64,000 nucleotides of DNA from Trueperaceae bacterium (GTDB taxonomy: Bacteria > Deinococcota > Deinococci > Deinococcales > Trueperaceae): assembly GCA_036381035.1 (NCBI GenBank), contig DASVDQ010000106.1, positions 1 through 64,000 of the forward strand. Reading direction: 5' to 3'. Position 1 is the first letter of the stretch. Every line of letters starts with the position of its first letter. Positions 48,222-64,000 of this stretch are shown here, piece after piece. The position numbers were made by a program, and so were the translations under genes. A model generated the notes under the pieces. It had not been told where the DNA came from, ran no database searches, and saw only the letters and a list, made by a program, of their open reading frames with translations.

Positions 48222-49511
48222 TCAGCCGGCACCGGCGCGCTCGGGCGAGGGGGCGGTGCGCTCGTCCGGGTCGACCGTCGTTCCCGAGGGGTCCTCGATG
48301 AGCGGCGCGTCGTCGCCGGCCAGCGCGCTCAGGAGCGCGCTGTGCGAGAGGACGCCGACAAGCCGCTTGTCGTCGTCGAGCACGGCGATGGGGAGCCGGC
48401 TGTCGGCGCTCAGGGCCAGGAGTTCGCTGAGCGGGGTGTCCTCGGGCACCGTGGGAGCCTCCTCCGAGAGCACGAGCCGCAGGTCCGGGCTGCCGACCCG
48501 CTCCCCCCTGGCCACGGCGTCGCGGGTGGCGACGCCCCTGTACCGGCCGTCGTCGCCTACCACGAAGACGTGGTCCCACCGCCGCGCCCGCAACGTCTCG
48601 AGCAGCTGACCCGGGCGCGTGTCCAGCGTCACCGGTTCGACCGGGTCCATCGCCGCCGCGGCGGTGAGGACCCGCCCGCGGTCGACGTGCTGCACGAACG
48701 TCCTCACGTAGTCGTCGGCGGGGCGGGTGAGTATCTCGACCGGCGTGCCCACCTGCACGACCTCGCCGTCCTTGAGGATGGCGACCCGGTCCCCGAGCCG
48801 CAGCGCCTCGTCGAGGTCGTGCGTGATGAAGACGATCGTCTTGCTGAGCCGGCGTTGGAGCCGGATCAACAGGTCCTGCATCTCCCGACGGATGAGCGGG
48901 TCCAACGCGCTGAACGCCTCGTCCATGAGGAGGATCTCCGGATCGGTCGCGAGCGCCCTGGCGAGGCCCACCCTCTGCTGCATGCCGCCCGACAGCGCCG
49001 CTGGTCGCGCCTGCTCGTACCCGGACAGGCCGACCGCCGCGATCCAGCGCCTCGCCCTCCCGTGCCGCTCGTCCCTGTCCAGCCCCTGGACCTTGAGCCC
49101 GTACGCCACGTTGTCGATGACGTTGCGGTGCGGGAACAGGGCGAAGTGCTGGAACACCATGCCCATCTTCTCCCGGCGCACGCGCTCCATCTCGCGCCGG
49201 GACAGGCCGGTGATGTCCTCGCCGTCGATCAGGATCCGACCTGAGGTGGGCTCGATCAGTCGGTTGAGGCAGCGGACGAGGGTGGACTTCCCGCTGCCAG
49301 ACAGGCCCATCACGACGAACGTCTCGCCCTCGTGCACGGTCAGCGAGACCCCGTTGAGGCCGACCGTGTGCTTGGTCCGGCGCAGGACCTCGTCCTTGCT
49401 CGCCCCGGCACGGACCGTGTCGAGCACCGCCAGGGCGTCGCGACCGAAGATCTTGTACAGGTCCTCGACCACGATCTTGGCAGGGCGTCCTGCCGCGGCG
49501 GGCCGGCTCAT
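48222..49511 (-). CDS. proV: Glycine betaine/proline-type ABC transporter ATPase with CBS domains
   Basis: 429 residues. A ProV-specific N-terminus (Tyr-Lys-Ile-Phe-Gly) precedes Walker A Gly-Leu-Ser-Gly-Ser-Gly-Lys-Ser-Thr (69-77), signature Leu-Ser-Gly-Gly-Met-Gln-Gln-Arg and Walker B Leu-Leu-Met-Asp-Glu-Ala-Phe-Ser-Ala-Leu. Two CBS domains fill ~285-405. In OpuA-type systems these sense ionic strength or c-di-AMP. It powers uptake of a compatible solute. Last gene of proX-proW-proV. Confidence 0.94.
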   Translation of the reverse strand: MSRPAAAGRPAKIVVEDLYKIFGRDALAVLDTVRAGASKDEVLRRTKHTVGLNGVSLTVHEGETFVVMGLSGSGKSTLVRCLNRLIEPTSGRILIDGEDITGLSRREMERVRREKMGMVFQHFALFPHRNVIDNVAYGLKVQGLDRDERHGRARRWIAAVGLSGYEQARPAALSGGMQQRVGLARALATDPEILLMDEAFSALDPLIRREMQDLLIRLQRRLSKTIVFITHDLDEALRLGDRVAILKDGEVVQVGTPVEILTRPADDYVRTFVQHVDRGRVLTAAAAMDPVEPVTLDTRPGQLLETLRARRWDHVFVVGDDGRYRGVATRDAVARGERVGSPDLRLVLSEEAPTVPEDTPLSELLALSADSRLPIAVLDDDKRLVGVLSHSALLSALAGDDAPLIEDPSGTTVDPDERTAPSPERAGAG

Positions 49512-49542
49512 CGCTTCCCGTCCCTTCTCGCGGCGCGCCGCA

Positions 49543-50421
49543 TCACGGCCCCCGACTGCCGGCCTGGAAGCGACGGCTGTACCCCTGCGTGACCCGGTCC
49601 ATCACGATGGCCAAGATGACGATGGCGAGTCCGGCCTCCAGGCCCAGCCCCACGTCACCCCGCTGCAAGCCTCGTAGCACTTCCTGACCGAGCCCTCGCG
49701 CGCCGATCATCGAGGCGATGACGACCATGGCCAGCGCCATCATGATGGTCTGGTTGATCCCGGCCATGATGTTAGGGACCGCCAGAGGGAGCTGCACGTC
49801 GAAGAGCGTCTGCCTGCTGGTGGCGCCGAAGGACCGCGAGGCCTCGATGACCTCGCGGTCGACGAGGCGGATGCCGAGGTCGGTCAGCCGGATCACGGGG
49901 GGAACGGCGTACACGAACGTCGCGAAGATGGCCGCCACGTTGCCGAGGCCGAAGAGCATGACCACGGGGATCAGGTAGACGAAGCTCGGCATCGTCTGCA
50001 TGGCGTCCAGCACCGGCTTCAGCACGCCTCGGAAGGCGTCGTTCCTGCCCATCAGGATCCCGACCGGTATGCCGACGACGATGGATATCACCGTGGCGAC
50101 CACCATGAGGGCGAGCGTCGTCATCAGCTCGGGCCACAGGCCGAACGTGCCCACGAGCATCATCAGGCCCGCCATGACGACCGCCGGCAGGAGACGACGC
50201 CCGAAGGCGTGCCACACCAGCAGGCCCAGCGCCAGGACGACGAGCCACCACGGCAGCCAGACGAGGAACCGCTCGACCCGGACGAGCGCGAAGAGGAGCG
50301 CGTTCGTGATGGCGTCGAAGAAGTGGCCGTAGTGAGCGACCAGCCAGTCGACCGCGCCGTTGGTCCATTCCCGGAGCGGTACGTCCCACTCCGGGAAGGT
50401 CCTACCGAAGACCTGGCTCAT
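49543..50421 (-). CDS. proW: Glycine betaine/proline-type ABC permease
   Basis: 292 residues, about six TM helices. The BPD permease loop Glu-Ala-Ser-Arg-Ser-Phe-Gly-Ala-Thr (coupling helix) and Met-Gln-Thr-Met-Pro-Ser-Phe-Val-Tyr-Leu-Ile-Pro are typical of ProW/OpuAB. It forms the channel with ProV. Starts 34 bases after the proX stop. Confidence 0.94.
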   Translation of the reverse strand: MSQVFGRTFPEWDVPLREWTNGAVDWLVAHYGHFFDAITNALLFALVRVERFLVWLPWWLVVLALGLLVWHAFGRRLLPAVVMAGLMMLVGTFGLWPELMTTLALMVVATVISIVVGIPVGILMGRNDAFRGVLKPVLDAMQTMPSFVYLIPVVMLFGLGNVAAIFATFVYAVPPVIRLTDLGIRLVDREVIEASRSFGATSRQTLFDVQLPLAVPNIMAGINQTIMMALAMVVIASMIGARGLGQEVLRGLQRGDVGLGLEAGLAIVILAIVMDRVTQGYSRRFQAGSRGP

Positions 50422-50455
50422 GTCAGAGCACCCGCCTCAACGCCGTGGACGCGGG

Positions 50456-51505
50456 TCACCGCAGCGCGGCCTGCACCCGCTCGGCGACGTCCTGGGGCAC
50501 CCACTGCGTCCAGAGGTCCACGTGCGTCTCCAGGAAGTGCAGGGCGGCCTCCTCCGGAAGGGCCTCGTTGTCCTTCATGTACGCGAGCGCCTGGCTGACG
50601 AGGGAGCTGCTCAGCTCGAAGTTCTCGAAGAACGCGAGGATGTCGTCACTCGCGGCCGCGGCGAACGCGTCGCTGAGCCCGATGTGGACGACCGAGGCCG
50701 GGTAGGCGCACGCCTGCTCGGGGTCCTCGAGGTTCGCCATCAGCTGGTCCCAGCACTCCTCGGTGTACTCGGGCTCCTCGAGCATCACCATGTCGAGCTT
50801 CCCGAGCACCCAGGTCGGTCCCCAGTAGTACCCGAACCACGGCTCGCCCTGCAGGTAGGCGGACTCCATCGAGCTCGCCAGCGCGACGCCGGTGCCCGGG
50901 GGGAAGCTGTTGAAGTACTCGTCCAGGCCGTACGCCTTGAGCTTGGCGTTGTTTATGCCCTCGCAGACCCAGCCGATGATGCAGTTGTAGAAGCGGCCCT
51001 TGTCGGGCTGCTCCGGGTCCTGGAACAGGTGCGCGTACTTGGCGATGTCCTGCACGGTGACCAGGTCGGGAGCCATCGGCTCGATGCCACGTTCCGGGTC
51101 GCCCTCGATCACGTAGCGAGGCACGAAGAAGCCCTGCTGGCCGTCGTCGAAGATGACGCCCATGTCGACGATCTCGCCGGATTCCAGTGCCTCCGGGAGG
51201 AACTCCGCCGGGTTGTCGAGCCAGATCTCGGTGAGCACGTCTATGTCATCGCGGATCAGGCCCTGCTGCATGGGCACGGTGGAGCCCGGGATGATGCCGG
51301 TGGTGCACCCGAAGCCTTCCTCGAGGATGAAGCGGGCGATGGCGTTGTTCACCTGGGCGCTGTCCCAGTCCTGCTCGCCGAAGATGATCGCGTCGGAATA
51401 TCCGCCGCAGTCGCGCTCTTGTGCAGCGGCGTGGCCGCAGAGCAACACGGCGGCCGCCGCGAGAGACGAGACCACGGCTCTGACCTTGTGACGTGTCACG
51501 GTCAT
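50456..51505 (-). CDS. proX: Glycine betaine/proline-type substrate-binding protein
   Basis: 349 residues, ATG after AGGAG. Signal peptide cleaved near Ala-Ala-Ala-Gln. OpuAC-type fold with Trp residues in the ligand box (Phe-Gly-Glu-Gln-Asp-Trp-Asp-Ser-Ala, Thr-Glu-Ile-Trp-Leu-Asp-Asn, Trp-Phe-Gly-Tyr-Tyr-Trp-Gly-Pro-Thr-Trp), suited to quaternary ammonium compounds. It has six or more Cys, more than usual. First gene of its operon, with a palindrome at a likely promoter ~125 bases upstream. Confidence 0.93.
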   Translation of the reverse strand: MTVTRHKVRAVVSSLAAAAVLLCGHAAAQERDCGGYSDAIIFGEQDWDSAQVNNAIARFILEEGFGCTTGIIPGSTVPMQQGLIRDDIDVLTEIWLDNPAEFLPEALESGEIVDMGVIFDDGQQGFFVPRYVIEGDPERGIEPMAPDLVTVQDIAKYAHLFQDPEQPDKGRFYNCIIGWVCEGINNAKLKAYGLDEYFNSFPPGTGVALASSMESAYLQGEPWFGYYWGPTWVLGKLDMVMLEEPEYTEECWDQLMANLEDPEQACAYPASVVHIGLSDAFAAAASDDILAFFENFELSSSLVSQALAYMKDNEALPEEAALHFLETHVDLWTQWVPQDVAERVQAALR

Positions 51506-51864: not shown

Positions 51865-52857
51865 ATGCGGAGCCCACGCCAGATGTTGGCAGCGCTGGTC
51901 CTAGCGCTGGCAGCGTCGCCCGCCATGGCCCAAGGCGGCGACCTGCCCGTAGTGAACGCCGCCATGGAGGCCACCGGCACGTTCTCCTGGATCGTGCACG
52001 CCATGGACTACTTCGGCACGGCGGAGGCCAACGGCATCAGGGTCGTCGGCACGCCGTACGCCAGCAAGCAGGCGACCGAGATCGCCCTGCGCAGCGGCGA
52101 GGCCGACGTCAAGGTCGACGACTTCCTCGCCCCCGTCCTGCTGCGGCAGGCGGGCATCAACGCCAGCGGCATCTACCCCTACGCCACGGCCATCGGCGGG
52201 CTCGTCGTGCCCGTCGACTCCGACATCCAGGGGCTCGAGGACCTCGACGGCAGGACCATCGCCGCCGGCGCGCTGCGCGACAAGAGCATCCTCATCCTCC
52301 GCACGCTGACGATCTCGGAGTACGGCTTCGACGTCGGCGACGACCAGGTCGTCCAGGCCGCGCCGCCGCTGATGATGGAGCTCACGGCCTCAGGTGAGGT
52401 CGACGCGGCGCTGCCGCTGTGGCACTGGGTCGCGCGCATGGAGGCCGCCGGCGTGGGGCGCGAGATCATGACCGTGGCCGACATGCTCGAGCGCCTCGGC
52501 CTGCCCCGCGACCTGCCGAACCTCGTCGTGGTCGCCCGCGACGACATGCCCGACGAGCTGAAGACGGCCTTCATCGCCGCGCTGCGGGACACGTTCGAGG
52601 TCATGAAGGCCACGCCGGCGGACGACCCGTTCTGGCAGACGATCCTCGACGAGGGCCTCTACTCGCTGCCCGACCCGAGCCAGTTCCCGCAGGTCATCGA
52701 GCGCTGGAAGGCCGGCACGACCGACAAGTGGGACCAGGAGTCGATAGACGGGCTCGTCACGATGGTCGAGCGCCTCGTCGAGCTCGCCGGGCCCGAGGCC
52801 GTCGGGGTCGAGAGCGTGGACCCTGCCGCCTACACCACCGAGTTCTTGCCGCGCTGA
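51865..52857 (+). CDS. ABC transporter substrate-binding protein (SsuA/NMT1-like)
   Basis: 330 residues from ATG 51865 with GGAGGTG 8 bases upstream. Signal peptide ends Ala-Met-Ala-Gln. The mature part has the NMT1/SsuA-like pattern of a type 2 binding protein (Gly-Thr-Pro-Tyr-Ala-Ser-Lys-Gln-Ala-Thr-Glu-Ile-Ala-Leu-Arg-Ser-Gly-Glu-Ala-Asp). Only distant to characterised sulfonate or thiamine-precursor proteins. It heads a binding protein-permease-ATPase set and is followed on the same strand by the quinoprotein genes, so its ligand may be the oxidation substrate, product or a cofactor metal. Confidence 0.88.
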   Translation: MRSPRQMLAALVLALAASPAMAQGGDLPVVNAAMEATGTFSWIVHAMDYFGTAEANGIRVVGTPYASKQATEIALRSGEADVKVDDFLAPVLLRQAGINASGIYPYATAIGGLVVPVDSDIQGLEDLDGRTIAAGALRDKSILILRTLTISEYGFDVGDDQVVQAAPPLMMELTASGEVDAALPLWHWVARMEAAGVGREIMTVADMLERLGLPRDLPNLVVVARDDMPDELKTAFIAALRDTFEVMKATPADDPFWQTILDEGLYSLPDPSQFPQVIERWKAGTTDKWDQESIDGLVTMVERLVELAGPEAVGVESVDPAAYTTEFLPR

Positions 52858-52872
52858 GGGTAGGGTCGCCGG

Positions 52873-53702
52873 GTGGCGGTAGATGCTGAGAGAGCGGCCC
52901 CTGCCGTCGTCCGGCCCAAAGTCCCGAGGAGCTCAGGCGCCGGCGTCGGCCCCTGGCTGACGCTGGCGTCTTACGGCTCGCTGCTGGTCCTGTGGCTCGT
53001 GGGCGCCCGCGTGGCGCCCGACCTCATCCCCGGGCCCGTGGAGACGCTCGACTTCGTCGCCCGCGAGTACCGGCGCGGCGTGCTGCTCGGCCACCTGTGG
53101 GTCACCACCCAGCGGGTCCTCAGCGCCTTCGCCATCGGCATGGTCATAGGCGTCGCCGCCGGCGCCGCCATGGGCGCCTCGAAGCGAGTCGACGACCTGC
53201 TGCAGGGCTGGCTCGTCGTCCTGCTCACGATCCCGCGCATCCTGCTCTTCGTCGTCGCCTACCTCACGATCGGCCTCTCCGACCAGGCGCTCGTCGTCGC
53301 CCTCGTCATCACGATCGTGCCCACGATCGTCGTGGCCGTGCGCGAGGGCGCCAGGGCCACCGACTCCTCGCTCGTCGACATGGCCAGGGCGTTCCGGCGC
53401 TCGCGCGCCGCCACCTGGCTCCACGTGGTGTTCCCTCAGCTCACCCCCTACATCGTCGGCACGGCGCGCGGCTCGCTGGCGCTGACCTGGAAGATGGTCG
53501 TCCTCGGCGAGCTCCTGGGGCGCACCTCCGGCGTCGGCTACCAGATCTCCTTCTACTTCCAGTTCTTCAACATGACGGGGATCCTCGCCTACGGCGTGAC
53601 GATGATGGTGCTGCTCGCCGTCGTCGACCTCGGCGTCATGGGGGCGCTGCAGAGGGTCGCGTTCCGCTGGCGCGCGCCCGTGAAGGTGAGCGCTGTCGGC
53701 TG

Positions 53703-53703
<1 letters not shown>
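52873..53703 (+). CDS. ABC transporter permease (SsuC/TauC-like)
   Basis: 276 residues, GTG start. About six TM helices with the coupling loop Asp-Met-Ala-Arg-Ala-Phe-Arg-Arg-Ser and family block Trp-Lys-Met-Val-Val-Leu-Gly-Glu-Leu-Leu-Gly. Fifteen bases after the binding-protein gene. Its TGA overlaps the ATPase ATG by one base. Confidence 0.92.
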
Positions 53704-54485
<782 letters not shown>

Positions 54486-54594
54486 CGAGGTCCCGGCGCC
54501 GCCTCAGCGACCGCTGTCGCCTCCCCGGCCGCCCCGGCGATGAAGGGGTACGCTAAGCCCAGCGGCCACGCGGATATACGATATGCGTTAGACT

Positions 54595-54714
54595 CCAACC
54601 GCACCGATGCGTAAGCCACGGCAAGTCAAGGGTCATTTGTCCCGCCACGCGCCAGGCCGCGGCGTGGCGCGGCGAGAACGGCGGCCGGAGCGCCGCCTTA
54701 GGAGGAAAGACCGA
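54595..54714 (+). promoter_or_regulatory. Structured leader of the cytochrome/quinoprotein genes
   Basis: An AT-rich stretch with TAGACT (54589-54594) may be the promoter. Downstream, 54643-54650 pairs perfectly with 54662-54669 (8 bp), and 54680-54685 with 54692-54697 (6 bp, all G/C). The second hairpin ends 2 bases before the AGGAGG ribosome site (54700-54705). This layout could control translation. No known riboswitch is recognised. Confidence 0.4.
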
Positions 54715-55533
54715 GTGATCCCCGGATCCAAGTCCGTGCGCAAGGTGTTGCCCCTAGCCCTGGGCGCGGCCCTGGCCGTGGCGGCGCTCGCCGCCGAGGC
54801 CGGCGCCGACCTGGCCGTGAGCAACCACCCCGAGCTGGGCGAGATAGTCGTCGACGGCGCCGGCAACACGCTCTACGTCTTCGCCCCCGACGCGCAGGGC
54901 GAGAGCACCTGCTACGAGACCTGCGCGGCGAACTGGCCGCCCCTCGTCTCCGACGGCGAGGTGACCGCGGGCGAGGGCCTCTCCCAGGACCTCGTCGGCG
55001 CCGTCACGCGCACCGACGGCTCAGAGCAGGTCACCTACGGCGGCTGGCCTCTCTACACCTTCGTCCGCGACACCGAGGCCGGCCAGGCCAACGGCCAGGG
55101 CGTCAACGACGCCTGGTTCGCGATCGCGCCGGACGGCACGCCCGTGGGCATGCCGGCGACCGAGGACGCCGAGGGCGAGGGCGGCGAGGACGCCGGAGGC
55201 GCTGACGGAGGCGACGCCGGCGGAGCCGGCGGCGACGACATGGCCGCCCTCATGAAGGAGGGCGCCGCGGTGTTCGCCCGCATCTGCGCCGCCTGCCACG
55301 GCGCCAACGGCGACGAGGCGCTCGTCGAGCACGCCGCCATCCTCGCCAACAACCCGCGCCTGGAGAACGTCAACAGGGTCGTCAGGCGCATCATCCACGG
55401 CGGCGGCTACATGCCGCCCGTCGGTCGAGACCTGTCGGACCGCGAGGTCGCCGCCGTCGCCACCTTCGTCCGCAACTCCTTCGGCAACGACTTCGGTCCC
55501 GTCGGAGAGGAGGCTGCCGCTGAGATGCGCTGA
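54715..55533 (+). CDS. PF03640-type repeat/cytochrome c fusion protein
   Basis: 272 residues from GTG 54715, selected for AGGAGG 9 bases upstream and the signal peptide it exposes. Residues ~25-150 are two units of the secreted PF03640 (lipoprotein_15) repeat (Thr-Leu-Tyr-Val-Phe, Cys-Tyr-Glu-Thr-Cys-Ala-Ala-Asn-Trp-Pro-Pro, Trp-Pro-Leu-Tyr-Thr-Phe). A Gly/Asp/Glu linker follows, then a monoheme cytochrome c: Cys191-Ala-Ala-Cys194-His195, and distal Met233 in Gly-Gly-Tyr-Met-Pro-Pro. It is the obvious electron acceptor for the PQQ dehydrogenase encoded 90 bases on, and needs the Ccm system. Confidence 0.9.
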   Translation: MIPGSKSVRKVLPLALGAALAVAALAAEAGADLAVSNHPELGEIVVDGAGNTLYVFAPDAQGESTCYETCAANWPPLVSDGEVTAGEGLSQDLVGAVTRTDGSEQVTYGGWPLYTFVRDTEAGQANGQGVNDAWFAIAPDGTPVGMPATEDAEGEGGEDAGGADGGDAGGAGGDDMAALMKEGAAVFARICAACHGANGDEALVEHAAILANNPRLENVNRVVRRIIHGGGYMPPVGRDLSDREVAAVATFVRNSFGNDFGPVGEEAAAEMR

Positions 55534-55623
55534 GAGGAGTCGAGAGCCGGAAGGTCTGCTTCGCAACGGAACACGAGAGAGCCTTGCTTGCATCGAGCCG
55601 TTCGGCACGGAGGAGGAAGATCG

Positions 55624-57372
55624 ATGAGACCCCAGCGGAAGCTACGCATCGTCACCCTCGTGGCGGCAGCCGCCTTGGCCGGCTTCGGCCTCGCGCAGAC
55701 CGACGAGGACATGCTCAACCCCCCGCCCGGCGAGTGGCCTCAGTTCGGGCGCGACTCGTTGGCGAACCGCTACAGCCCGCTCGACCAGATCAACACCGAG
55801 AACGTGGCCGACCTGCAGCTCGCGTGGGTCCGTGACATGGGCTACCGGCAGACGTTCCAGGGCACGCCCACGGTGTGGAACGGCATCATGTACGTGGCCA
55901 CCCAGACCGGCGTGACGGCCCTGGACGCCACCGACGGCTCCACCGTCTGGGAGTACAGCTCCCCCAACGAGGGCGAGGTCATCAACGACTCCGCCACGCG
56001 CGGCGCGCCCCTCGTCTACGACGGCAAGGTCTTCGCGAACCTGCGCTACGGCGCCACCGTCGCCCTCGACGCCGCGACCGGCGAGGAGCTCTGGAAGGTC
56101 CAGGTCACCAACGAGGCCCTGAACGAGGGCTTCACCACGAACCCGATCTGGGCTGACGGCAAGGTCATCGTCTCGCCCTCGGGCGCCGACTCCGGCGGCG
56201 CGCCGGGACGCATCCTGGCCCTCAACCCCGAGGACGGCGAGATCCTGTGGACCTTCAACATCATCCCGACCGGTCCCGAGGACCCCGCCTGGGCGACCTG
56301 GAACAACCCGCCGTCCTGGGAAGCCGGCATCGGCGGCGCCTCGGCGTGGAACGCGGGCGCCTACGACCCCGAGACCAACACGATCGTCTGGGGCACCGGC
56401 CAGCCGACCCCGTGGGACCGCGTCGACCCGCGCCGCGCCGACCCCGAGGGCGAGGTCACCGACGACCTCTACGCGAACACGTGGGTGGGGCTCGACGCCG
56501 ACACCGGCGAGCTGAAGTGGTACCGCCAGGCCCTGCCGGGCGACGAGTGGGACTACGACCAGCACCAGGTGCCGACGTTCGCCACCGTCGACTGGAACGG
56601 CGAGCAGCGCCGCGTGGCGATCATGGGCTCCTCGACGGGCTACATCTTCGTCGTCGACGCCGACACGGGCGAGCAGCTCGCCAACCACCCGGCCTTCACC
56701 ACCGCGGTCCCCGACGCGGAGTACACCATCATCCTCGGCTACGACGACGACGGCCGCGCCATCGTGAACGAGGAGGCGCGCGAGTCGAACCAGGCCTTCG
56801 CCGAGACCTTCGACTTCTTCGACATGTGCCCCGGCCTGCGCTGGGCGCACATCGCGCCGCCGGCCTTCAGCCCTGACACAGGCCTGTACTACCGGCCGAA
56901 CAACACCGCCTGCATCGAGTTCGGCTCGGTCTCGATCCCCGACGACTGGCAGCCCGGCGAGCGCGCGTTCGACTGGGAGACCGGCGAGAACACGTGGTTC
57001 GACCGCCTCGGCGGCCTCAGCGCCTTCGACCCGGTGACGGGCGAGGTCGTCTGGGAGTTCACGTACGACTACGGCTACGACGCCGGACCGGTCGTGACGG
57101 CGGGCGGCCTCGTCTTCTCCGCCTTCACCGACCGCACCTTCCGCGCGTTCGACGCCGCGACCGGCGAGCTGCTGTGGAGCCACCCCCTGTCCACGGGCTC
57201 CAACGCCGGCACCATCACCTACGAGGTCGACGGCGAGCAGTACGTGGCCACCATGGTCGGCAAGACCGGCTTCGCGGCCGGCGGGGCGATCCCCGACTAC
57301 AACCCCGAGGTCGAGGACCTGTTCGTGCCCCCGACGGGCGGCGTGGCGGTCTTCGTCTTCAAGCTGCCGTAA
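55624..57372 (+). CDS. PQQ-dependent dehydrogenase (quinoprotein)
   Basis: 582 residues from ATG 55624 (GGAGG 7 bases upstream), signal peptide ending Gly-Leu-Ala-Gln. Eight-bladed propeller repeats of the Ala-Leu-Asp-Ala-x-Thr-Gly-Glu-x-x-Trp type. Aligning by eye to methanol dehydrogenases, Glu-Trp-Asp310-Tyr-Asp312 supplies the catalytic Asp and the +2 Asp typical of lanthanide enzymes (XoxF type). The usual metal-ligand Asn of Thr-Gly-Asn-Pro is Gln260, and the usual Glu appears as Asp189. The vicinal Cys-Cys of MxaF/XoxF is absent; only two Cys occur, far apart. It probably oxidises an alcohol or similar substrate in the periplasm. No PQQ biosynthesis genes are in the window. Confidence 0.9.
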   Translation: MRPQRKLRIVTLVAAAALAGFGLAQTDEDMLNPPPGEWPQFGRDSLANRYSPLDQINTENVADLQLAWVRDMGYRQTFQGTPTVWNGIMYVATQTGVTALDATDGSTVWEYSSPNEGEVINDSATRGAPLVYDGKVFANLRYGATVALDAATGEELWKVQVTNEALNEGFTTNPIWADGKVIVSPSGADSGGAPGRILALNPEDGEILWTFNIIPTGPEDPAWATWNNPPSWEAGIGGASAWNAGAYDPETNTIVWGTGQPTPWDRVDPRRADPEGEVTDDLYANTWVGLDADTGELKWYRQALPGDEWDYDQHQVPTFATVDWNGEQRRVAIMGSSTGYIFVVDADTGEQLANHPAFTTAVPDAEYTIILGYDDDGRAIVNEEARESNQAFAETFDFFDMCPGLRWAHIAPPAFSPDTGLYYRPNNTACIEFGSVSIPDDWQPGERAFDWETGENTWFDRLGGLSAFDPVTGEVVWEFTYDYGYDAGPVVTAGGLVFSAFTDRTFRAFDAATGELLWSHPLSTGSNAGTITYEVDGEQYVATMVGKTGFAAGGAIPDYNPEVEDLFVPPTGGVAVFVFKLP

Positions 57373-57380
57373 GCCACGGG

Positions 57381-57397
57381 CGGGACCGACAGTCCCG
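57381..57397 (+). terminator. Small hairpin just after the PQQ-dehydrogenase stop
   Basis: 57381-57386 (CGGGAC) pairs with 57392-57397 around 5 bases. It lies 8 bases past the stop and just ahead of a larger hairpin. Confidence 0.35.
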
Positions 57398-57407
57398 CAG
57401 AGACAAG

Positions 57408-57443
57408 GACGCGGACCGGGAGCAGCAGTTCCCGGTCCGCGTC
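57408..57443 (+). terminator. Strong intrinsic-terminator-like hairpin after the PQQ dehydrogenase
   Basis: 57408-57421 pairs perfectly with 57430-57443 (14 bp) around an 8-base loop, followed by GGTTGGT. It should end most transcripts of the cytochrome-dehydrogenase unit and separate it from the next gene, which has TAGAGT (57471-57476) as a possible -10. Confidence 0.65.
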
Positions 57444-57506
57444 GGTTGGTAGGGCGGCGTGCCCCTGGTCTAGAGTCCCTGCATACAAGGAAAGCGAGGC
57501 CGACGA

Positions 57507-59477
57507 GTGCGAACGCGCCTGCTAGCCCTCACCCTCTGCCTGACAGTCCTCGGTCAGCTCGCCTCCGCTCAGGAGGGCGCCTTCGAGCTGGCGTTCTGCG
57601 CCCAGCCCTCCAGCTACCCCATCTCAGACAGGGAGCGCGGCGGCTTCGACGTCGAGATCGCGGAGATCCTCGCCGACGAGCTCGGCGCCACCGCGACGTT
57701 CACCTGGACGCAGTTCGACGACTTCGGCATCAGGGACACGCTGCACGCCGGGGTCTGCGACGTCGCCGTCGGGGTATCGGAGGGCGTCGCCGAGATGATG
57801 ACGACGGTCCCCTACCTCGACGCCGCCTACGCCTTCGTCACGCGGCAGGAGGACGGCCTCACCATCGAGTCGCTCGACGACCCGCAGCTCCGCGAGCTGC
57901 GCATCGGCACCTACCAGTCCGCGCTCCCGACCTTCGCGCTGCGGAACCGGGGCATCCTCGAGAACGTCACCGAGTACGCGGCCGTCATCACGCCCACGGG
58001 CGTCGACCCGCACACGCCCATCCTCGACGGCCTCGTCAACGGCGAGGTGGACGTGGCCATCGTCTACGGCCCCTACGCGGCCGCCAGGGCCGCCGAGGAG
58101 GAGGTCGCGCTGAGCGTCACCCCGCTGACGCCCCAGGTCGACGTCGGCCCCTCGCTCCTGCAGCTCTCGCGCATCCTCACCATCGGAGTGCGCCCGCGCG
58201 ACGAGTCGCTGCGCGACGCCATCGACCGCGCCCTCGCCGCGCGTTGGGAGGACGTGCAGGCGGTGCTCGACGCCTACGGCGTCCCGCGCTTCCCCGTGTC
58301 GCGCCCCGTGTTCACCGACGAGCTCGCCGGCACGGTCAAGGTCGGCGTGATCTTCCCCGCCAGCACGCCAGCGGCGCTGCCCAACGGCCCTGTGGGCGAC
58401 GTCGCCCGCCTGGGCGCGGCGGTCGCCGAGAGCGCCGTCTCCCGGGGCGGGGACGCGCAGCCCAGGTTCCGCGTGCTCGACGCGCACGCGCCCACGCTCG
58501 CGTCCGCCGAGAGGGCCGCCCGGCGGCTGGTCGCCGTGGACGGCGTCAGCGCCCTGGTGGGCGGCTACGACGAGGAGCAGGCGCGCGCCCTCGCCGCGGT
58601 GGCTGCCGAGCTCGGCGTGCCCTTCTTCAACGCCGGCTCCGGCGACGACGCCCTGCGCTCCTCCGCCTGCTACCCGACGACGTTCCACGTGGCGCCGAGC
58701 ACCGCCATGATGGTCGCGGCCAGCCTCACCGCCGTCGCGCCGGACGCCGCGGCCGTCTACGCGGTCATCGAGGGCGCGGACCGCGCCGAGGCGCTCGCCC
58801 CGTACGTCGAGGAGGTCGTGACCGCCGCCGGCGCCGCCCTGGCCGGCACGGCCACGGTGGAGCCGGGTCAGTTCGTCTTCTTCCCCCTGCTCCAGGAGAT
58901 CGCCGGCACGGGAGCCGACGCGGTCCTCCTCATCGCGTCCTCCGACGCGCAGGAGCAGTTCATCAGCCAGGCCTCAGCCGTCGTCCCCGACGCACGCCTG
59001 GTCGGCGTGAGCCCCGTGGGCGGCCAGTCGCGGCCGTACCTCGAGCGCTTCCGCCAGGTGGCGCCGGGCGGCGCGCCCGACCCGCGGGTCGTGGCGTGGG
59101 ACCCCGCCGTGGACTCGGACCTCAACGAGACCTACGCCTCGCGCACCGGCGAGCCCATGGAGCCCGCCGCCTGGACCACGTACGCCGCGATCGTCGCCAC
59201 GTTCGAGGCCGCGCGCGCGGGAGCGCTCGGCTCCCCCGAGGAGCTGGCCGCGTTCCTCCGCGACCCGGCCTCCGCGATCGACGTGGGCAAGGGCGAGCCC
59301 GTGACGTTCCGCGAGGACGGGCAGATGCTGCAGGAGCTCTACGTCATAGAGGCCGACCCCGAGGCGCGCTGGGGTCGCACCGCGGCCGCCCGCACGGCCA
59401 TCGCCACGGTCGCCGAGGTCGTGCCAGCCTCGCTCACCGCCGACGCGGCGCTGCCGGCCACCTGCGAGGCGCCCTGA
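57507..59477 (+). CDS. Fusion of a MoxJ/XoxJ-like type 2 and a LivJ-like type 1 periplasmic binding protein
   Basis: 656 residues, GTG after AAGGAAA. Signal peptide ends Leu-Ala-Ser-Ala-Gln. Residues ~25-270 are a family 3-type binding domain (Tyr-Pro-Ile-Ser-Asp-Arg ... Gly-Phe-Asp-Val-Glu-Ile-Ala; Gly-Val-Cys-Asp-Val-Ala-Val-Gly-Val), as in quinoprotein-associated MoxJ/XoxJ proteins. Residues ~280-640 form a type 1 fold like branched amino acid binding proteins (Val-Lys-Val-Gly-Val-Ile-Phe-Pro, Leu-Val-Gly-Gly-Tyr, Pro-Phe-Phe-Asn-Ala-Gly-Ser). Separate proteins of both kinds occur beside PQQ alcohol dehydrogenases; here they are one chain. The stop overlaps the next gene's start. Confidence 0.85.
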   Translation: MRTRLLALTLCLTVLGQLASAQEGAFELAFCAQPSSYPISDRERGGFDVEIAEILADELGATATFTWTQFDDFGIRDTLHAGVCDVAVGVSEGVAEMMTTVPYLDAAYAFVTRQEDGLTIESLDDPQLRELRIGTYQSALPTFALRNRGILENVTEYAAVITPTGVDPHTPILDGLVNGEVDVAIVYGPYAAARAAEEEVALSVTPLTPQVDVGPSLLQLSRILTIGVRPRDESLRDAIDRALAARWEDVQAVLDAYGVPRFPVSRPVFTDELAGTVKVGVIFPASTPAALPNGPVGDVARLGAAVAESAVSRGGDAQPRFRVLDAHAPTLASAERAARRLVAVDGVSALVGGYDEEQARALAAVAAELGVPFFNAGSGDDALRSSACYPTTFHVAPSTAMMVAASLTAVAPDAAAVYAVIEGADRAEALAPYVEEVVTAAGAALAGTATVEPGQFVFFPLLQEIAGTGADAVLLIASSDAQEQFISQASAVVPDARLVGVSPVGGQSRPYLERFRQVAPGGAPDPRVVAWDPAVDSDLNETYASRTGEPMEPAAWTTYAAIVATFEAARAGALGSPEELAAFLRDPASAIDVGKGEPVTFREDGQMLQELYVIEADPEARWGRTAAARTAIATVAEVVPASLTADAALPATCEAP

Positions 59478-61192
59478 GGCCGAGGAACGCCCTGGGGCTG
59501 TGCCTGGCCCTGGCCGCCGTCGCCGGCCTCTCGGCGGCGCGGGGACAGGGCGCGGCCGGCGACTGGCTGCAGCTCGGCGGCGACCCGTCGGGCACGCGCT
59601 TCAGCGCCCTCGACCAGATCGACGTGACGAACGTTTCTCGGCTGCGGGTCGCCTGGGTCGCCGAGCTGGGCTTCACCGGACGCGTCCAGGGCGCTCCCGC
59701 CGCCTGGGACGGCGTCCTGTTCGTGAGCACGGAGACCGGGGTGCTGGCGCTCGACGGCGCCACCGGCGCGCTGCTGTGGCGCTACGAGGAGGGGACGGGC
59801 GACAGGACCACCGCGGGCCTGCCCGTGCAAGCGCCGCGCGGGAGCCCGGTCGTGGCGCCGGACGGTGAGGGCGCGACGGTGTTCGCCTCGCTGCCCTCGG
59901 CGCCGGCGGTGGTGGCGCTCGACGCCGTCACCGGCGCGCTGCGCTGGCGCACCGACGTGGGGCACCCCGACTTCGCCGAGGCCCTCAGGACGAACCCGCT
60001 CCTGGCCGGCGACGTGCTCGTCGTGGGCCCCACGGGTGCCGACCTCAGCCCCGTGCCCGGCCGGCTCGTCGCCCTCGACCCCGCCACGGGCGAGGTCGTC
60101 TGGACCTTCGACACCGTGCCGGTGGCGGAGGACGACCCGGCGCGCGCGACCTGGGGCCCCTACCCGCCCGGCCGCAGCTTCGGCGTGGGGGGCGGGTCGG
60201 CGTGGAACGCCGGCGCCTACGACCCCGTCTCCGGCGTGGTCGTCTACGGCACGGGGCAGCCCATACCCTCCGACAACCTCGACCCGCGACGCTTCGACGG
60301 GGACGGGCCCGTCACGCCCGACCTCTACACCTCGAGCTTCGTGGGGCTAGACGCCGCCACCGGCGAGCTGAGGTGGTTCCACCAGGTCGTCCCCGGCGAC
60401 GAGTGGGGCTACGACCAGCACACGGTCCCCGTGGTCGTCGACCTGCCTGCCGGGGAGGGGACCGTGCGCGCGGCGCTCCTCGCCACGACGACGGGGTTCC
60501 TCCTCGCCGTCGACGTCGCCACGGGCGAGCTGCTGGCCGCCCACCGGATGGTCGAGGAGGCGAACGTTCACGTGGGGTACGACGACGCGGGGCGCCCCGT
60601 CATCGACGAGAGCATGCGCCGCACCTCGCCGGACGAGGTCCTGCGCGTCTGTCCCGGCAGCCGCTGGGCCAGCATCGCGCCGGCGGCCTACAGCCCCGTC
60701 ACGGGCCTCCTCTACCGCCCCAACGACACGGCGTGCTCGCGCCAGGGGGCGGTCAACGCCCCCGACGACTGGCAGCCCGGCGCCAGGCCGAACTGGCTCC
60801 TGGTCGAGGTGAGGCTGGCGGAGGACTACTTCGCGCGCTGGGGAGCGCTGTCGGCTCTGGACCCCGTCACGGGCGAGGTCGCCTGGAGCTTCGACGTCCC
60901 CTACCCGCACGACGCCGGGGCGCTGGCCACGGCCGGCGGGCTCGTCTTCTCCGCCTTCGCCGACAGGCAGTTCAGGGCCTTCGACGCCGCCACCGGCGCG
61001 GTGCTGTGGAGCCAGGTGCTCACGGCGCACTCCGACGCCGCGCCCGTCACCTACCTGGCCGGCGGCGTGCAGTACGTGGCCGTGATGGCCGGCCGGGACA
61101 CGCCCGTGCCCAGCCTGCCGGCCACGGGCCTGCCCGCCTCGCTCACGGGCCCGGCCACGCTGTTCGCGTTCGCGCTGCCGCGCCCACCCTGA
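59474..61192 (+). CDS. PQQ-dehydrogenase paralogue lacking the catalytic Asp; probable CTG start
   Basis: 572 residues. No ATG, GTG or TTG sits upstream of the signal peptide. CTG 59474 overlaps the previous stop as CTGA, has GAGG in front (59466-59469) and gives Arg-Pro-Arg-Asn-Ala-Leu-Gly-Leu-Cys-Leu-Ala-Leu, a clean signal peptide. The propeller and many blocks match the dehydrogenase at 55624-57372 (Tyr-Gly-Thr-Gly-Gln-Pro, Tyr-Arg-Pro-Asn-Asp-Thr-Ala-Cys, Asp-Asp-Trp-Gln-Pro-Gly), but the active-site block is Glu-Trp-Gly312-Tyr-Asp314: catalytic Asp is Gly. It may be a non-catalytic partner, a PQQ or metal binder, or use another mechanism. Its end overlaps the convergent VWA gene by 50 bases. 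Confidence 0.85.
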   Translation: MRPRNALGLCLALAAVAGLSAARGQGAAGDWLQLGGDPSGTRFSALDQIDVTNVSRLRVAWVAELGFTGRVQGAPAAWDGVLFVSTETGVLALDGATGALLWRYEEGTGDRTTAGLPVQAPRGSPVVAPDGEGATVFASLPSAPAVVALDAVTGALRWRTDVGHPDFAEALRTNPLLAGDVLVVGPTGADLSPVPGRLVALDPATGEVVWTFDTVPVAEDDPARATWGPYPPGRSFGVGGGSAWNAGAYDPVSGVVVYGTGQPIPSDNLDPRRFDGDGPVTPDLYTSSFVGLDAATGELRWFHQVVPGDEWGYDQHTVPVVVDLPAGEGTVRAALLATTTGFLLAVDVATGELLAAHRMVEEANVHVGYDDAGRPVIDESMRRTSPDEVLRVCPGSRWASIAPAAYSPVTGLLYRPNDTACSRQGAVNAPDDWQPGARPNWLLVEVRLAEDYFARWGALSALDPVTGEVAWSFDVPYPHDAGALATAGGLVFSAFADRQFRAFDAATGAVLWSQVLTAHSDAAPVTYLAGGVQYVAVMAGRDTPVPSLPATGLPASLTGPATLFAFALPRPP

Positions 61193-64000
61193 CCGCGGCG
61201 GACAGGCGCGGCAGGACCCCGAAGCGCACGGCCAGGGAGGCCAGGAAGGCCAGCAGGGCGGCCAGGAGCCAGGCCGCGGGCAGCGGCAGCCACGCCAGCG
61301 CTCGTCCGCCGCTCGCGTCCACCTCGGACGCAGACGCCAGGACGGCGCCGCCCGTCGCCTCCGCCAGGCCCGCGACCGGCACGACGTCGGAGCGCAGGGC
61401 CGGTCCCGGGGCGATCGGCCAGGCGACGGTCCTGGCGACGCCGGCCTCGAGGCCCAGGCCGGGCGCCGGGCCGAGGGCGACGGTCAGCTCGCCCTCCTGG
61501 GAGGCGTCGACCTCGAAGCTGGCGGCGGCCCGCGCCGGGCCCGTCCACTCGAGCCGGCGACGCGCCAGCGCCTCGCCGCCCGCGCCCGACACAGTGACCA
61601 GGGGCAGGTCCGTGGCCGACGCGCCCGCCGCCGCGGCCGGCACGTCGACGATGACGTCGAGGACGTCGCCGCGCCGCGCCAGCCTCAGGGACCAGGGGTC
61701 GCGCACGGGGCGCTCGGCGATCCAGCGCACGAGCTGGGCCCAGGTGGTGGCGTAGCTCGCCGAGCTCGTCCAGGCGCGCGACCAGCGTCCGTCGGCGTCG
61801 GAGGTGAAGGCCGCGGCGCGGCCGAGGCCGTAGCGCCAGGTCGCCAGCAGCGGGTCGTCGCCGTCGGCGAAGGCGAGGACGGTGGCCTCGTCCTTCGGCG
61901 TCGTCCTCACGTACCCCTCGAAGGTCGGGAGCTCGCTGGCGGTCAGCTCCTCCAGGAAGTCGGGGGCGCCCTCCTCCACCCAGCGCGGGGTTATCGTCCG
62001 CTCCTCGATGGGCTGGGCGGCCAGCATCAGCGCCTCCTGCGCCAGCAGGCTGGGGAGGGCCCTGAAGTCGCGCGCCATGTGCAGCGTGCCGCCGCTGAGG
62101 CTCGCCAGGGTCGTGAGCTGGCGCTGGTCGGCCGCGTCGCCCACCCCCACGAACGTCGTCGTGATGCCCTCGCGCGTCAGGGCGCGGAGGACGCCGGCGA
62201 AGTCGCCCCCCTGCGACAGGCCGTCGGTCATGACGACGACGTGCCGGGTGGCGGAGTCCGACGCCGCCATCAGCTGGTAGGCGGCGAGGAGCCCGGGGTA
62301 TATCGCCGTGCCGCCCGCCGGCGTGACCGCGGCGAGCGCGGACCGGAACGCCTCGGCGTCGCCGACCGGCGTGAGCGGGAGCATGACGCGGGCCTCGGTG
62401 TCGAAGACGATCACCGCCGCCAGGCTGCGCTCGCCCAGGAGCGCCAGGGCCTCGAGCGTGGCCACCTTGGCCACGTCCATGCGGTTCGACTCCGCCACGG
62501 CGCCGCTCATGCTGCCGGAGCGGTCGAGCACGAACGCCATCGCCACCTCCGGCGCCTCGTCGGTGATCCGGGAGGAGACCGGCGAGAGCTCCTCGAGCGG
62601 GGTCGCGTAGTAGCCGCCGGGGCCGAACGACGAGGTCCCTCCCACGATCGCCAGGCCGCCGCCGACCTCCCGGACGTAGCGCTCGAGGAGCGCCTGGTAC
62701 TCGGGGAAGATGGCGTTGGCGGCGACGTCGACGAGCAGGACGGCGTCGTAGTCGTCGAGCCGTTCGATGGTGCCGGGCATCCTCAGGGGCGCGACCCTCT
62801 CCACGGCGAGCCCCTGGGCCTCGAGGGCCGCCCCGAGCGCCCGGCCGCGGGACTCGTCGGCCGCGACGAGCAGCACGGCGGGCGGCGGACCCACGCTCAC
62901 GCTCACCCGCGTCGCCGCCGCGGCCCCGCCCCCCTCGGGGCGCAGCTCCAGGCGGTACACGAGGTCCCCCTGCCCTCCGGCCTCGAGCTCGAGCTCGGCC
63001 GTGCCGGGTCCCGTGCCGCTCGCCTCGGCCGAGGCCGTAGGCGCGACCGCGCCGCCTCCGCCCGCCGGCGACTCGAGGGTCGCGGTCGCCCGCCATGACG
63101 CGCCCTCGGGAGCAGACACCTCGGCGAGCAGGGAGAAGCGCGAGCCGGCGCGCACGCGCTCGGGCAGCGCCACCGCTGCCAGCGCCGGTCCCGTCGGCGA
63201 CGCCGGGGCGCCGGTGGAAGACGGCCGCGTCGCGAGCACGTCGACCCTCACGCCTCCCGCCGCCGCCGCGTCCGCCAGGCGCCCCGCGTCCCGCACGGGC
63301 AGGGCGTCGCCGGCGTCGGCGGGAACGACCACCCGCAGGCCTCGCGGGCCCCGCGGCAGCGCGAGCGCCCGCTCGAGCGCGGTCGTCAGGTCGGCGGCTG
63401 GGCCCGTCGTGCCTCGCGGCGCCAGCGGCCGGCGGCCGACCCAGGTCCACTCGGCGCCGGCGGCCGGCGGGGCCTCGCGTCCCACCCAGACGACGGTCCC
63501 CCCGGGGCCGAGGCCCGGCAGCGGCACGCCCATCACGCCCGCCGCGGACGCGAGGAGCGCCACACCGGCCAGCGCCAGCGGCACACGCCAGCGCCGGCGC
63601 ACGACCCGCCGCTGACGGAAGAGGCCCAGGAGCCCCTCGGCGGCGATGATGGCGGCGGCGAGCAGCGCCAGCCAGCGCCACGCCTCCCAGCCGGTAATGG
63701 AGGCACCGGCGGCAGGCCCCCCGCCGGACGCGTCGGCCGGCTCGCCGCCCAGCGGCGAGGTGACCACGGGCAGGGTCACGGGCCCGCCGGCGGTCACGAG
63801 CGTGTACGTACCTGTCGCTTCCGGCACGAACCCGGCGTCGAACTGCGGGCCGGTCCACACGGCCGCGGCGAGCGGGTCGCCCTCGACGGCCTCGGGCGCG
63901 GGCGTGCCCGGCACCGGCGACCCGGCCGGGTCGAGGAGCTCCCAGCCGCCGGCGAAGGCCTCGCGCGGCCACGGGCACGCCTCGCCGACGCGGCAGCCGC
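61143..64000 (-). CDS. VWA-domain membrane protein with GATase1-like domain, 5' end outside the window
   Basis: The frame is open to the window edge, so the N-terminus is missing; ~951 residues are visible. Two TM helices (encoded near 63690-63540) are followed by variable beta-domains and a GATase1-like/DUF1355-type stretch (Tyr-Asp-Ala-Val-Leu-Leu-Val-Asp-Val; Gly-Gly-Gly-Leu-Ala-Ile-Val-Gly-Gly). Next is a von Willebrand A domain with an intact MIDAS (Leu-Asp-Arg-Ser-Gly-Ser-Met-Ser; Gly-Gly-Thr-Ala-Ile-Tyr; Met-Thr-Asp-Gly-Leu-Ser). A C-terminal TM helix ends the chain. Related proteins sit with MoxR ATPases and Bat-type operons; such genes may lie past 64000. It runs tail to tail into the quinoprotein paralogue. 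Confidence 0.88.
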   Translation of the reverse strand, partial: GCRVGEACPWPREAFAGGWELLDPAGSPVPGTPAPEAVEGDPLAAAVWTGPQFDAGFVPEATGTYTLVTAGGPVTLPVVTSPLGGEPADASGGGPAAGASITGWEAWRWLALLAAAIIAAEGLLGLFRQRRVVRRRWRVPLALAGVALLASAAGVMGVPLPGLGPGGTVVWVGREAPPAAGAEWTWVGRRPLAPRGTTGPAADLTTALERALALPRGPRGLRVVVPADAGDALPVRDAGRLADAAAAGGVRVDVLATRPSSTGAPASPTGPALAAVALPERVRAGSRFSLLAEVSAPEGASWRATATLESPAGGGGAVAPTASAEASGTGPGTAELELEAGGQGDLVYRLELRPEGGGAAAATRVSVSVGPPPAVLLVAADESRGRALGAALEAQGLAVERVAPLRMPGTIERLDDYDAVLLVDVAANAIFPEYQALLERYVREVGGGLAIVGGTSSFGPGGYYATPLEELSPVSSRITDEAPEVAMAFVLDRSGSMSGAVAESNRMDVAKVATLEALALLGERSLAAVIVFDTEARVMLPLTPVGDAEAFRSALAAVTPAGGTAIYPGLLAAYQLMAASDSATRHVVVMTDGLSQGGDFAGVLRALTREGITTTFVGVGDAADQRQLTTLASLSGGTLHMARDFRALPSLLAQEALMLAAQPIEERTITPRWVEEGAPDFLEELTASELPTFEGYVRTTPKDEATVLAFADGDDPLLATWRYGLGRAAAFTSDADGRWSRAWTSSASYATTWAQLVRWIAERPVRDPWSLRLARRGDVLDVIVDVPAAAAGASATDLPLVTVSGAGGEALARRRLEWTGPARAAASFEVDASQEGELTVALGPAPGLGLEAGVARTVAWPIAPGPALRSDVVPVAGLAEATGGAVLASASEVDASGGRALAWLPLPAAWLLAALLAFLASLAVRFGVLPRLSAAVRVGAAARTRTAWPGP

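What the first reader, a model, noticed from the sequence alone, without database searches (positions are those of the whole stretch)
51865..61192. Candidate new module: ABC importer + PF03640/cytochrome c + two PQQ-type quinoproteins + double binding protein
Seven same-strand genes combine transport, periplasmic oxidation and electron acceptance. Methylotroph xox/mxa clusters carry a dehydrogenase, a MoxJ/XoxJ-like protein and a cytochrome. Here each part is altered: the cytochrome is fused to a PF03640 repeat domain, the J-like protein is fused to a type 1 binding protein, and a second dehydrogenase-like protein lacks the catalytic Asp. I know of no described system with this set in this lineage.
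Basis: partly seen in the sequence, partly recalled or inferred. Interest (0 to 1): 0.75.

Follow-up and report, generated by a model that had tools for sequence, protein, structure and literature searches.

The report
PQQ-scavenging alcohol-oxidation gene island
In a Trueperaceae bacterium that lacks the genes tested for making the redox cofactor PQQ, a set of genes appears to import PQQ and load it, probably with a rare-earth metal, into outside-the-cell alcohol-oxidising enzymes, using a two-in-one loading protein found here only in this bacterial phylum.

Summary
Seven same-strand genes (51865-61192) encode an ABC importer, a PF03640-cytochrome c fusion, a quinoprotein dehydrogenase, a XoxJ/type-1 binding-protein fusion and a quinoprotein without the catalytic Asp.
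The importer's binding protein has the PQQ-binding protein PqqT as its best PDB match and shares conserved residues with it. Its orthologues occur in 14 of the 15 phylum genomes that carry XoxJ; in Pseudomonadota the family also tracks XoxJ. No phylum genome (0/111) has PqqE or PqqC above cut-off, so the host is very probably a PQQ scavenger.
The type-1 half of the double protein is a duplicate of PedA1/LutA, the lanthanide-importer binding protein. Intermediates (separate neighbours, tandem copies, fusion) exist in the phylum. No fused copy appeared in samples of 247 Acidobacteriota, 349 Pseudomonadota and 95 Methylomirabilota genomes.
The dehydrogenase keeps the D-x-D lanthanide motif but has a re-made metal site (Glu to Asp, Asn to Gln, no disulfide).
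The module is one part of a larger conserved island with a PedA1A2BC-like operon, a two-component system and MoxR/VWA genes. It is a new variant of known quinoprotein systems. PQQ import and metal loading are inferred, not shown.

The parts
51865..52857 (+). PqqT-type substrate-binding protein (P0001)
   Evidence: Best PDB hit PqqT 9b1u/9b1v E 3e-18, SsuA next at E 3e-4; 31 of 61 near-invariant residues shared with PqqT
52873..53703 (+). ABC permease (P0002), BPD_transp_1
   Evidence: Pfam 68 bits; operon partner in relatives
53703..54485 (+). ABC ATPase (P0003)
   Evidence: Pfam ABC_tran 99 bits
54715..55533 (+). Secreted protein: two PF03640 repeats fused to a c-type cytochrome (CAACH); GTG start with AGGAGG
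   Evidence: 17 such fusions collected in the phylum
55624..57372 (+). PQQ dehydrogenase P0005, D-x-D motif, altered metal site (D, Q), no CC disulfide
   Evidence: TIGR03075; residues; AF2 model close to PedH 6zcv/6zcw
57408..57443 (.). 14-bp perfect GC-rich inverted repeat between dehydrogenase and double-protein genes
   Evidence: function unknown
57507..59477 (+). Double binding protein P0006: XoxJ/PedG-like half (about 28-262) + PedA1/LutA-like type-1 half (about 275-620)
   Evidence: TIGR03871 183 bits, TIGR03863 61 bits, XoxJ 6onp E 2e-27; trees
59474..61192 (+). Second quinoprotein P0007, catalytic Asp replaced by Gly; probable CTG start
   Evidence: orthologues in three other genomes
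61143..63998 (-). Neighbour: VWA/GATase1-like protein, part of a MoxR-BatA-VWA cluster reaching C106:68919, beside the module in several relatives

Best explanation
This is a periplasmic alcohol (or sugar-alcohol/aldehyde) oxidation module of a bacterium that apparently does not make PQQ. A PqqT-type ABC importer (P0001-P0003) captures scavenged PQQ. P0006, a fusion of a XoxJ/PedG-type dehydrogenase chaperone with a duplicate of the PedA1/LutA lanthanide-importer binding protein, holds the apo-dehydrogenase and delivers metal and/or PQQ to it. P0005, a D-x-D quinoprotein with a re-made metal site, oxidises the substrate and passes electrons to the PF03640-cytochrome c protein P0004. P0007 is a non-catalytic (or weakly active) paralogue, perhaps a partner subunit or PQQ reservoir. 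Shown by sequence: gene order and its conservation, family identity of each part, PqqT similarity, absence of PqqC/PqqE, duplication history of the type-1 half, residue changes. Inferred: PQQ as ligand, lanthanide as metal, loading role, substrate, electron route, role of P0007.
For: PqqT: best PDB match 9b1u/9b1v, 69 bits against 24 for SsuA; 9B1V is PqqT with PQQ and Gd (PMC12828617) and PqqT binds PQQ at Kd 50 nM (PMC12124388); GTxSW, Asp86, Asp139-Lys140 (the Lys is PqqT Lys142 by numbering offset), Arg146, Trp186 and Arg191 are (nearly) invariant in 19 orthologues and present in PqqT. Co-occurrence: 14 of 15 XoxJ-bearing phylum genomes have the binding protein, P about 2e-13, and 16 of 18 genomes have it within about 10 kb of PQQ or PedABC-like genes. 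Independent sample: 24 of 32 Pseudomonadota genomes with this family also have XoxJ, 16 within 10 kb, P about 1e-23; 13/13 in Methylomirabilota. PQQ auxotrophy: PqqE and PqqC 0/111 over cut-off, none in G000; control 15/28 PQQ-dehydrogenase genomes of other phyla have PqqE at 500-622 bits. Fusion: split neighbours in G097 and G069, tandem copies in G097, fused copy followed by a PedA1A2BC-like operon in G070; tree with outgroups. P0005: fold of PedH and quinoprotein ADHs; D-x-D is the accepted sequence sign of lanthanide use (PMC11996626); Arg126 and Trp242, which I take to be the PQQ-site Arg and Trp from family knowledge, are conserved.
Against: PqqT identity is low and no ligand was tested. 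PQQ dehydrogenases are periplasmic, so import of PQQ into the cytoplasm is not obviously needed. G021 has the importer but no detectable PQQ dehydrogenase. P0005 changes two metal ligands and the PQQ-contacting Arg/Lys, so lanthanide use is uncertain. The fused type-1 half scores only 61 bits to TIGR03863 (cut-off 413). Many of the genomes are fragmented (MAGs) and the P values ignore shared ancestry. No expression data.
Confidence: 0.66

Rival explanations
1. The ABC importer brings in an organic substrate or product (sulfonate, carboxylate, vitamin precursor) linked to alcohol use; the dehydrogenases get PQQ by diffusion.
For: Family-level hits are to SsuA/NMT1/phosphonate-type proteins at low score. 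The dehydrogenases work in the periplasm, where PQQ could arrive without an inner-membrane importer.
Against: PqqT is the clear best solved relative and shares residues that SsuA lacks. One importer per genome in most cases against many dehydrogenase paralogues in G000 fits a common cofactor, not one substrate. The link to XoxJ holds in three phyla.
Confidence: 0.2
2. The ABC importer carries a lanthanide or lanthanide chelate rather than PQQ.
For: Linked to D-x-D dehydrogenases and XoxJ; PqqT also binds lanthanide together with PQQ (PMC12828617).
Against: A PedA1A2BC-like operon, the lanthanide importer type (PMC6839425), is already present on the same contig.
Confidence: 0.1
3. The fused type-1 half is an ordinary solute sensor or importer subunit for the alcohol or its product, not a metal or PQQ carrier.
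For: The closest solved folds are aromatic-acid and Leu-type binding proteins (weak model); low score to TIGR03863.
Against: Its nearest relatives are the binding proteins of the PedA1A2BC-like operons of the same genomes; the same fusion accompanies many different dehydrogenase paralogues.
Confidence: 0.3
4. P0005 and P0007 are non-PQQ, catalytically empty quinoprotein-like propellers.
For: Metal ligands and the Arg/Lys near PQQ are changed and the disulfide is absent; TIGR04528 'acido-empty-quinoprotein' also matches, below cut-off.
Against: Catalytic Asp, lanthanide Asp and the presumed PQQ-site Arg and Trp are conserved in the P0005 clade, while P0007 shows drift at the catalytic position.
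Confidence: 0.15

Closest known systems
ped cluster of Pseudomonas putida (PedA1A2BC, PedE/PedH, PedF cytochrome, PedG)
   Same: PQQ ADH with D-x-D form, c-type cytochrome, XoxJ-like PedG, PedA1A2BC-like lanthanide importer and two-component system in one region
   Different: Here PedG- and PedA1-type proteins are fused, the cytochrome carries PF03640 repeats, a PqqT-type importer is included, PqqC/PqqE were not found in the genome and the PQQ-ADH plus double-protein pair is present in many copies
xoxFGJ / mxaFJGI methanol oxidation clusters with lut cluster (Methylorubrum extorquens)
   Same: Dehydrogenase, cytochrome, J protein; LutA-type binding protein in the genome; MoxR-type genes nearby
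   Different: P0005 is only 26-27% identical to solved XoxF structures, altered metal site, no CC disulfide, J fused to a LutA-type protein
PqqT, periplasmic PQQ-binding protein of M. extorquens (PDB 9b1u/9b1v)
   Same: Best solved relative of P0001; shared GTxSW, DK, Arg and Trp residues
   Different: Low identity; M. extorquens makes PQQ, this lineage apparently does not
PedH (6zcv/6zcw) and quinohemoprotein ADH-IIG (1yiq)
   Same: Top structural matches of the P0005 model, 28-30% identity; same WDxD region as PedH
   Different: Glu to Asp, Asn to Gln, Arg/Lys to Ser/Thr, vicinal Cys pair absent

Membership tests
PqqT-type PQQ-binding protein | Closest solved relative is PqqT, with its conserved residues (Lys142) | tested here: met
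   the Lys142 match rests on a numbering offset
PqqT-type PQQ-binding protein | Binds PQQ at nanomolar affinity | not testable with these tools
   needs purified protein
XoxJ/MoxJ family (TIGR03871/TIGR03870) | Score over the curated cut-off | tested here: inconclusive
   Fused P0006 183 against cut-off 212; split homologues in G097 and G069 score 250 and 244, over it
XoxJ/MoxJ family (TIGR03871/TIGR03870) | Encoded next to a PQQ dehydrogenase and its cytochrome | tested here: met
PedA1/LutA (TIGR03863) | Score over the curated cut-off | tested here: not met
   61 bits for P0006, 118-140 for stand-alone relatives, cut-off 413
PedA1/LutA (TIGR03863) | Common ancestry with binding proteins of PedA1A2BC-like operons | tested here: met
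   trees
PedA1A2BC lanthanide importer (neighbouring operon, C106:81.3-86.9 kb) | Binding protein, YVTN propeller, ATPase, permease in order | tested here: met
   TIGR03863/03866/03864/03861 in order, all below cut-off; same set in relatives
Lanthanide-dependent PQQ ADH | D-x-D motif at the catalytic site | tested here: met
   criterion from PMC11996626
Lanthanide-dependent PQQ ADH | Glu and Asn metal ligands | tested here: not met
   Asp and Gln in all nine clade members
XoxF/MxaF methanol dehydrogenase | Vicinal Cys-Cys disulfide at the PQQ | tested here: not met
   absent in the P0005 and P0007 clades
TIGR04528 acido-empty quinoprotein | Score over cut-off 650 | tested here: not met
   286 and 258 bits

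The most novel reading that the evidence does not exclude
The double protein is a dedicated loading device in which a lanthanide (or lanthanide-PQQ) carrier is covalently tied to the dehydrogenase chaperone. This predicts that XoxJ and LutA/PedA1-type proteins cooperate in cofactor loading in lanthanide-using bacteria generally. It serves a new clade of quinoproteins with a different metal site in a lineage that lives on scavenged PQQ.
Probability: 0.33. Interest if true: 0.75.

Novelty: new variant of a known kind. Interest (0 to 1): 0.6.

Why it matters
How PQQ and lanthanides are inserted into periplasmic dehydrogenases, and what XoxJ-type proteins carry, is open. A natural fusion of XoxJ with a lanthanide-importer-type binding protein is a direct clue that the two work together, and it is testable with purified protein. 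The lineage also offers a case where many quinoproteins (about ten in one genome) depend on a cofactor that no sampled genome of the phylum appears able to make, with a candidate importer in the same gene set. No paper on PQQ or lanthanide systems in Trueperaceae was found in the library searched.

Tried and rejected
Single-protein scan of genome contigs with P0006 gave no relative, and the 18-row alignment was too divergent for that tool. Idea that the ABC is a taurine/sulfonate importer: set aside after the PqqT match. Idea that the fusion is widespread: no match spanning both halves among those listed for 691 genomes of three other phyla (the list for Methylomirabilota was cut at the weak end) nor in 78 PQQ loci outside Trueperaceae. 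Promoter scan found no sigma-70-like site and terminators at chance level. The AF2 model of P0006 is weak (pLDDT 68, five sequences) and was used only for fold class. PF03640-cytochrome literature: none found. One paper on MDH assembly was not held. Membership of P0005 in XoxF rejected on residues.

Full report
Observation. The seven genes exist at the stated coordinates, all on the + strand, with the stated domains. The starts of genes 4 and 6 are GTG; gene 7 probably starts at CTG 59474, overlapping the TGA of gene 6.

Conservation. P0005 orthologues of 58-74% identity lie in G035, G018, G034, G004 and G032, each followed by the double protein and preceded by the PF03640-cytochrome; G002 has the same trio with a dehydrogenase of about 47% identity. 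P0007 follows in G035, G034 and G032. The ABC operon is directly upstream in G018 and, cut by the contig end, in G035. The double protein was found, whole or cut by contig ends, in 12 genomes of the family and in G070, and as two genes in G097 and G069; G000 has about eight fused copies.

The importer. P0001 has PqqT as best PDB hit (E 3e-18, 279 residues) with SsuA far behind. PDB 9B1V is PqqT with PQQ and Gd (PMC12828617). Of 61 near-invariant positions in 19 orthologues that align to PqqT, 31 are identical, against 13 of 39 for SsuA (the SsuA segment is short, so this is indicative). The Lys corresponding to PqqT Lys142 was located by a 27-residue numbering offset, which is an inference. 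Orthologues of 44% identity or more occur in 18 of 111 phylum genomes, and 14 of the 15 XoxJ-bearing genomes have one; in G035 the contig starts inside the ATPase gene of the operon, so its binding-protein gene may simply be missing from the assembly. In 16 of 18 genomes the operon lies within about 10 kb of PQQ-dehydrogenase or PedABC-like genes; exceptions are G033 (short contigs) and G021 (no PQQ dehydrogenase found). The family also tracks XoxJ in Pseudomonadota (24 of 32 genomes, 16 within 10 kb) and Methylomirabilota (13 of 13). Shared ancestry is not corrected for in these P values.

PQQ synthesis. PqqE (TIGR02109) and PqqC (TIGR02111) have no match over cut-off in any of 111 genomes and none at all in G000, which is 96% complete. 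The same PqqE search found it at 500-622 bits in 15 of 28 PQQ-dehydrogenase genomes of other phyla. PqqB and PqqD were not searched. Scavenging of PQQ by non-producers is known (PMC12124388).

The double protein. Residues about 28-262 match XoxJ (6onp, E 2e-27) and MxaJ; the rest is a type-1 binding protein. Stand-alone relatives of that half are the first genes of PedA1A2BC-like operons, including one on the same contig at C106:81.3-86.9 kb (TIGR03863 140 bits, TIGR03866 228, TIGR03864 225, TIGR03861 123). PedA1A2BC is needed for growth at low lanthanum in P. putida (PMC6839425). In G069 one binding-protein gene follows xoxJ and heads the operon; in G097 two follow; in G070 a fused gene is followed by a stand-alone one. 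In the tree with outgroups the stand-alone proteins form one clade (100/98) and the fused copies group with the G097 neighbour copy (92/83), so one duplication followed by fusion is the simplest history; a later split in G097 is not excluded. In 691 genomes of three other phyla every listed match covered one half only, apart from small overhangs. Because the seven-gene cassette has no PedBC-type genes of its own, I infer the fused half carries metal and/or PQQ to the dehydrogenase instead of feeding an importer. This is the weakest step.

The dehydrogenase. The P0005 model (pLDDT 83, pTM 0.88) is closest to PQQ ADHs including lanthanide-dependent PedH. All nine clade members keep the catalytic and lanthanide Asp but have Asp for the metal Glu, Gln for the metal Asn, Ser/Thr for the PQQ-contacting Arg/Lys, and no vicinal cysteines. 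Arg126 and Trp242, taken as the PQQ-site Arg and stacking Trp from knowledge of the family, are invariant across 40 relatives. D-x-D is taken as the sign of lanthanide use (PMC11996626), but the other ligand changes make the metal uncertain. In the P0007 clade the catalytic Asp is Gly, Ala, Glu or Ser while the frame stays open and conserved, as expected for a retained non-catalytic paralogue.

The wider island. In G035, G034 and G032 the cassette sits near PedABC-like genes, VWA/MoxR genes and the PqqT-type operon. Pfam confirms MoxR, BatA and VWA/GATase1-like domains at C106:61-69 kb and a histidine kinase/response regulator pair beside the PedA1A2BC-like operon. MoxR-type genes also belong to the mxa methanol cluster (background knowledge).

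Verdict. A real, conserved unit, made of known kinds of parts in a new arrangement: a PQQ-scavenging quinoprotein island with a lineage-specific fusion of XoxJ and a LutA-type protein.

Noticed in passing
window 57408-57443: 14-bp perfect GC-rich hairpin between the dehydrogenase and double-protein genes.
   Followed up: no
L154:7171-8454 and L159:4851-6965: XoxJ domain fused to a cytochrome c in Bradyrhizobium sp. LTSP849 and in a 705-aa ORF of a Rokubacteria MAG: another kind of J-protein fusion.
   Followed up: no
G021:C376 (L097): PqqT-type ABC operon in a genome without a detected PQQ dehydrogenase.
   Followed up: partly
L114:3133-4230 (C106:83.1-84.2 kb): Conserved exported protein of 366 aa between PedA2-like and PedB-like genes, no Pfam or NCBIfam match.
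   Followed up: partly
G000 (C106, C108, C11, C120, C12, C13): About ten PQQ-dehydrogenase-like genes and about eight double binding proteins in one 3.4-Mb genome.
   Followed up: partly
window 48222-51505 (-): ProX/ProW/ProV-like glycine betaine importer operon divergent from the module.
   Followed up: no
L073:8389-10029 and C108 (L037): Further members of the D/Q metal-site clade outside the syntenic locus.
   Followed up: partly
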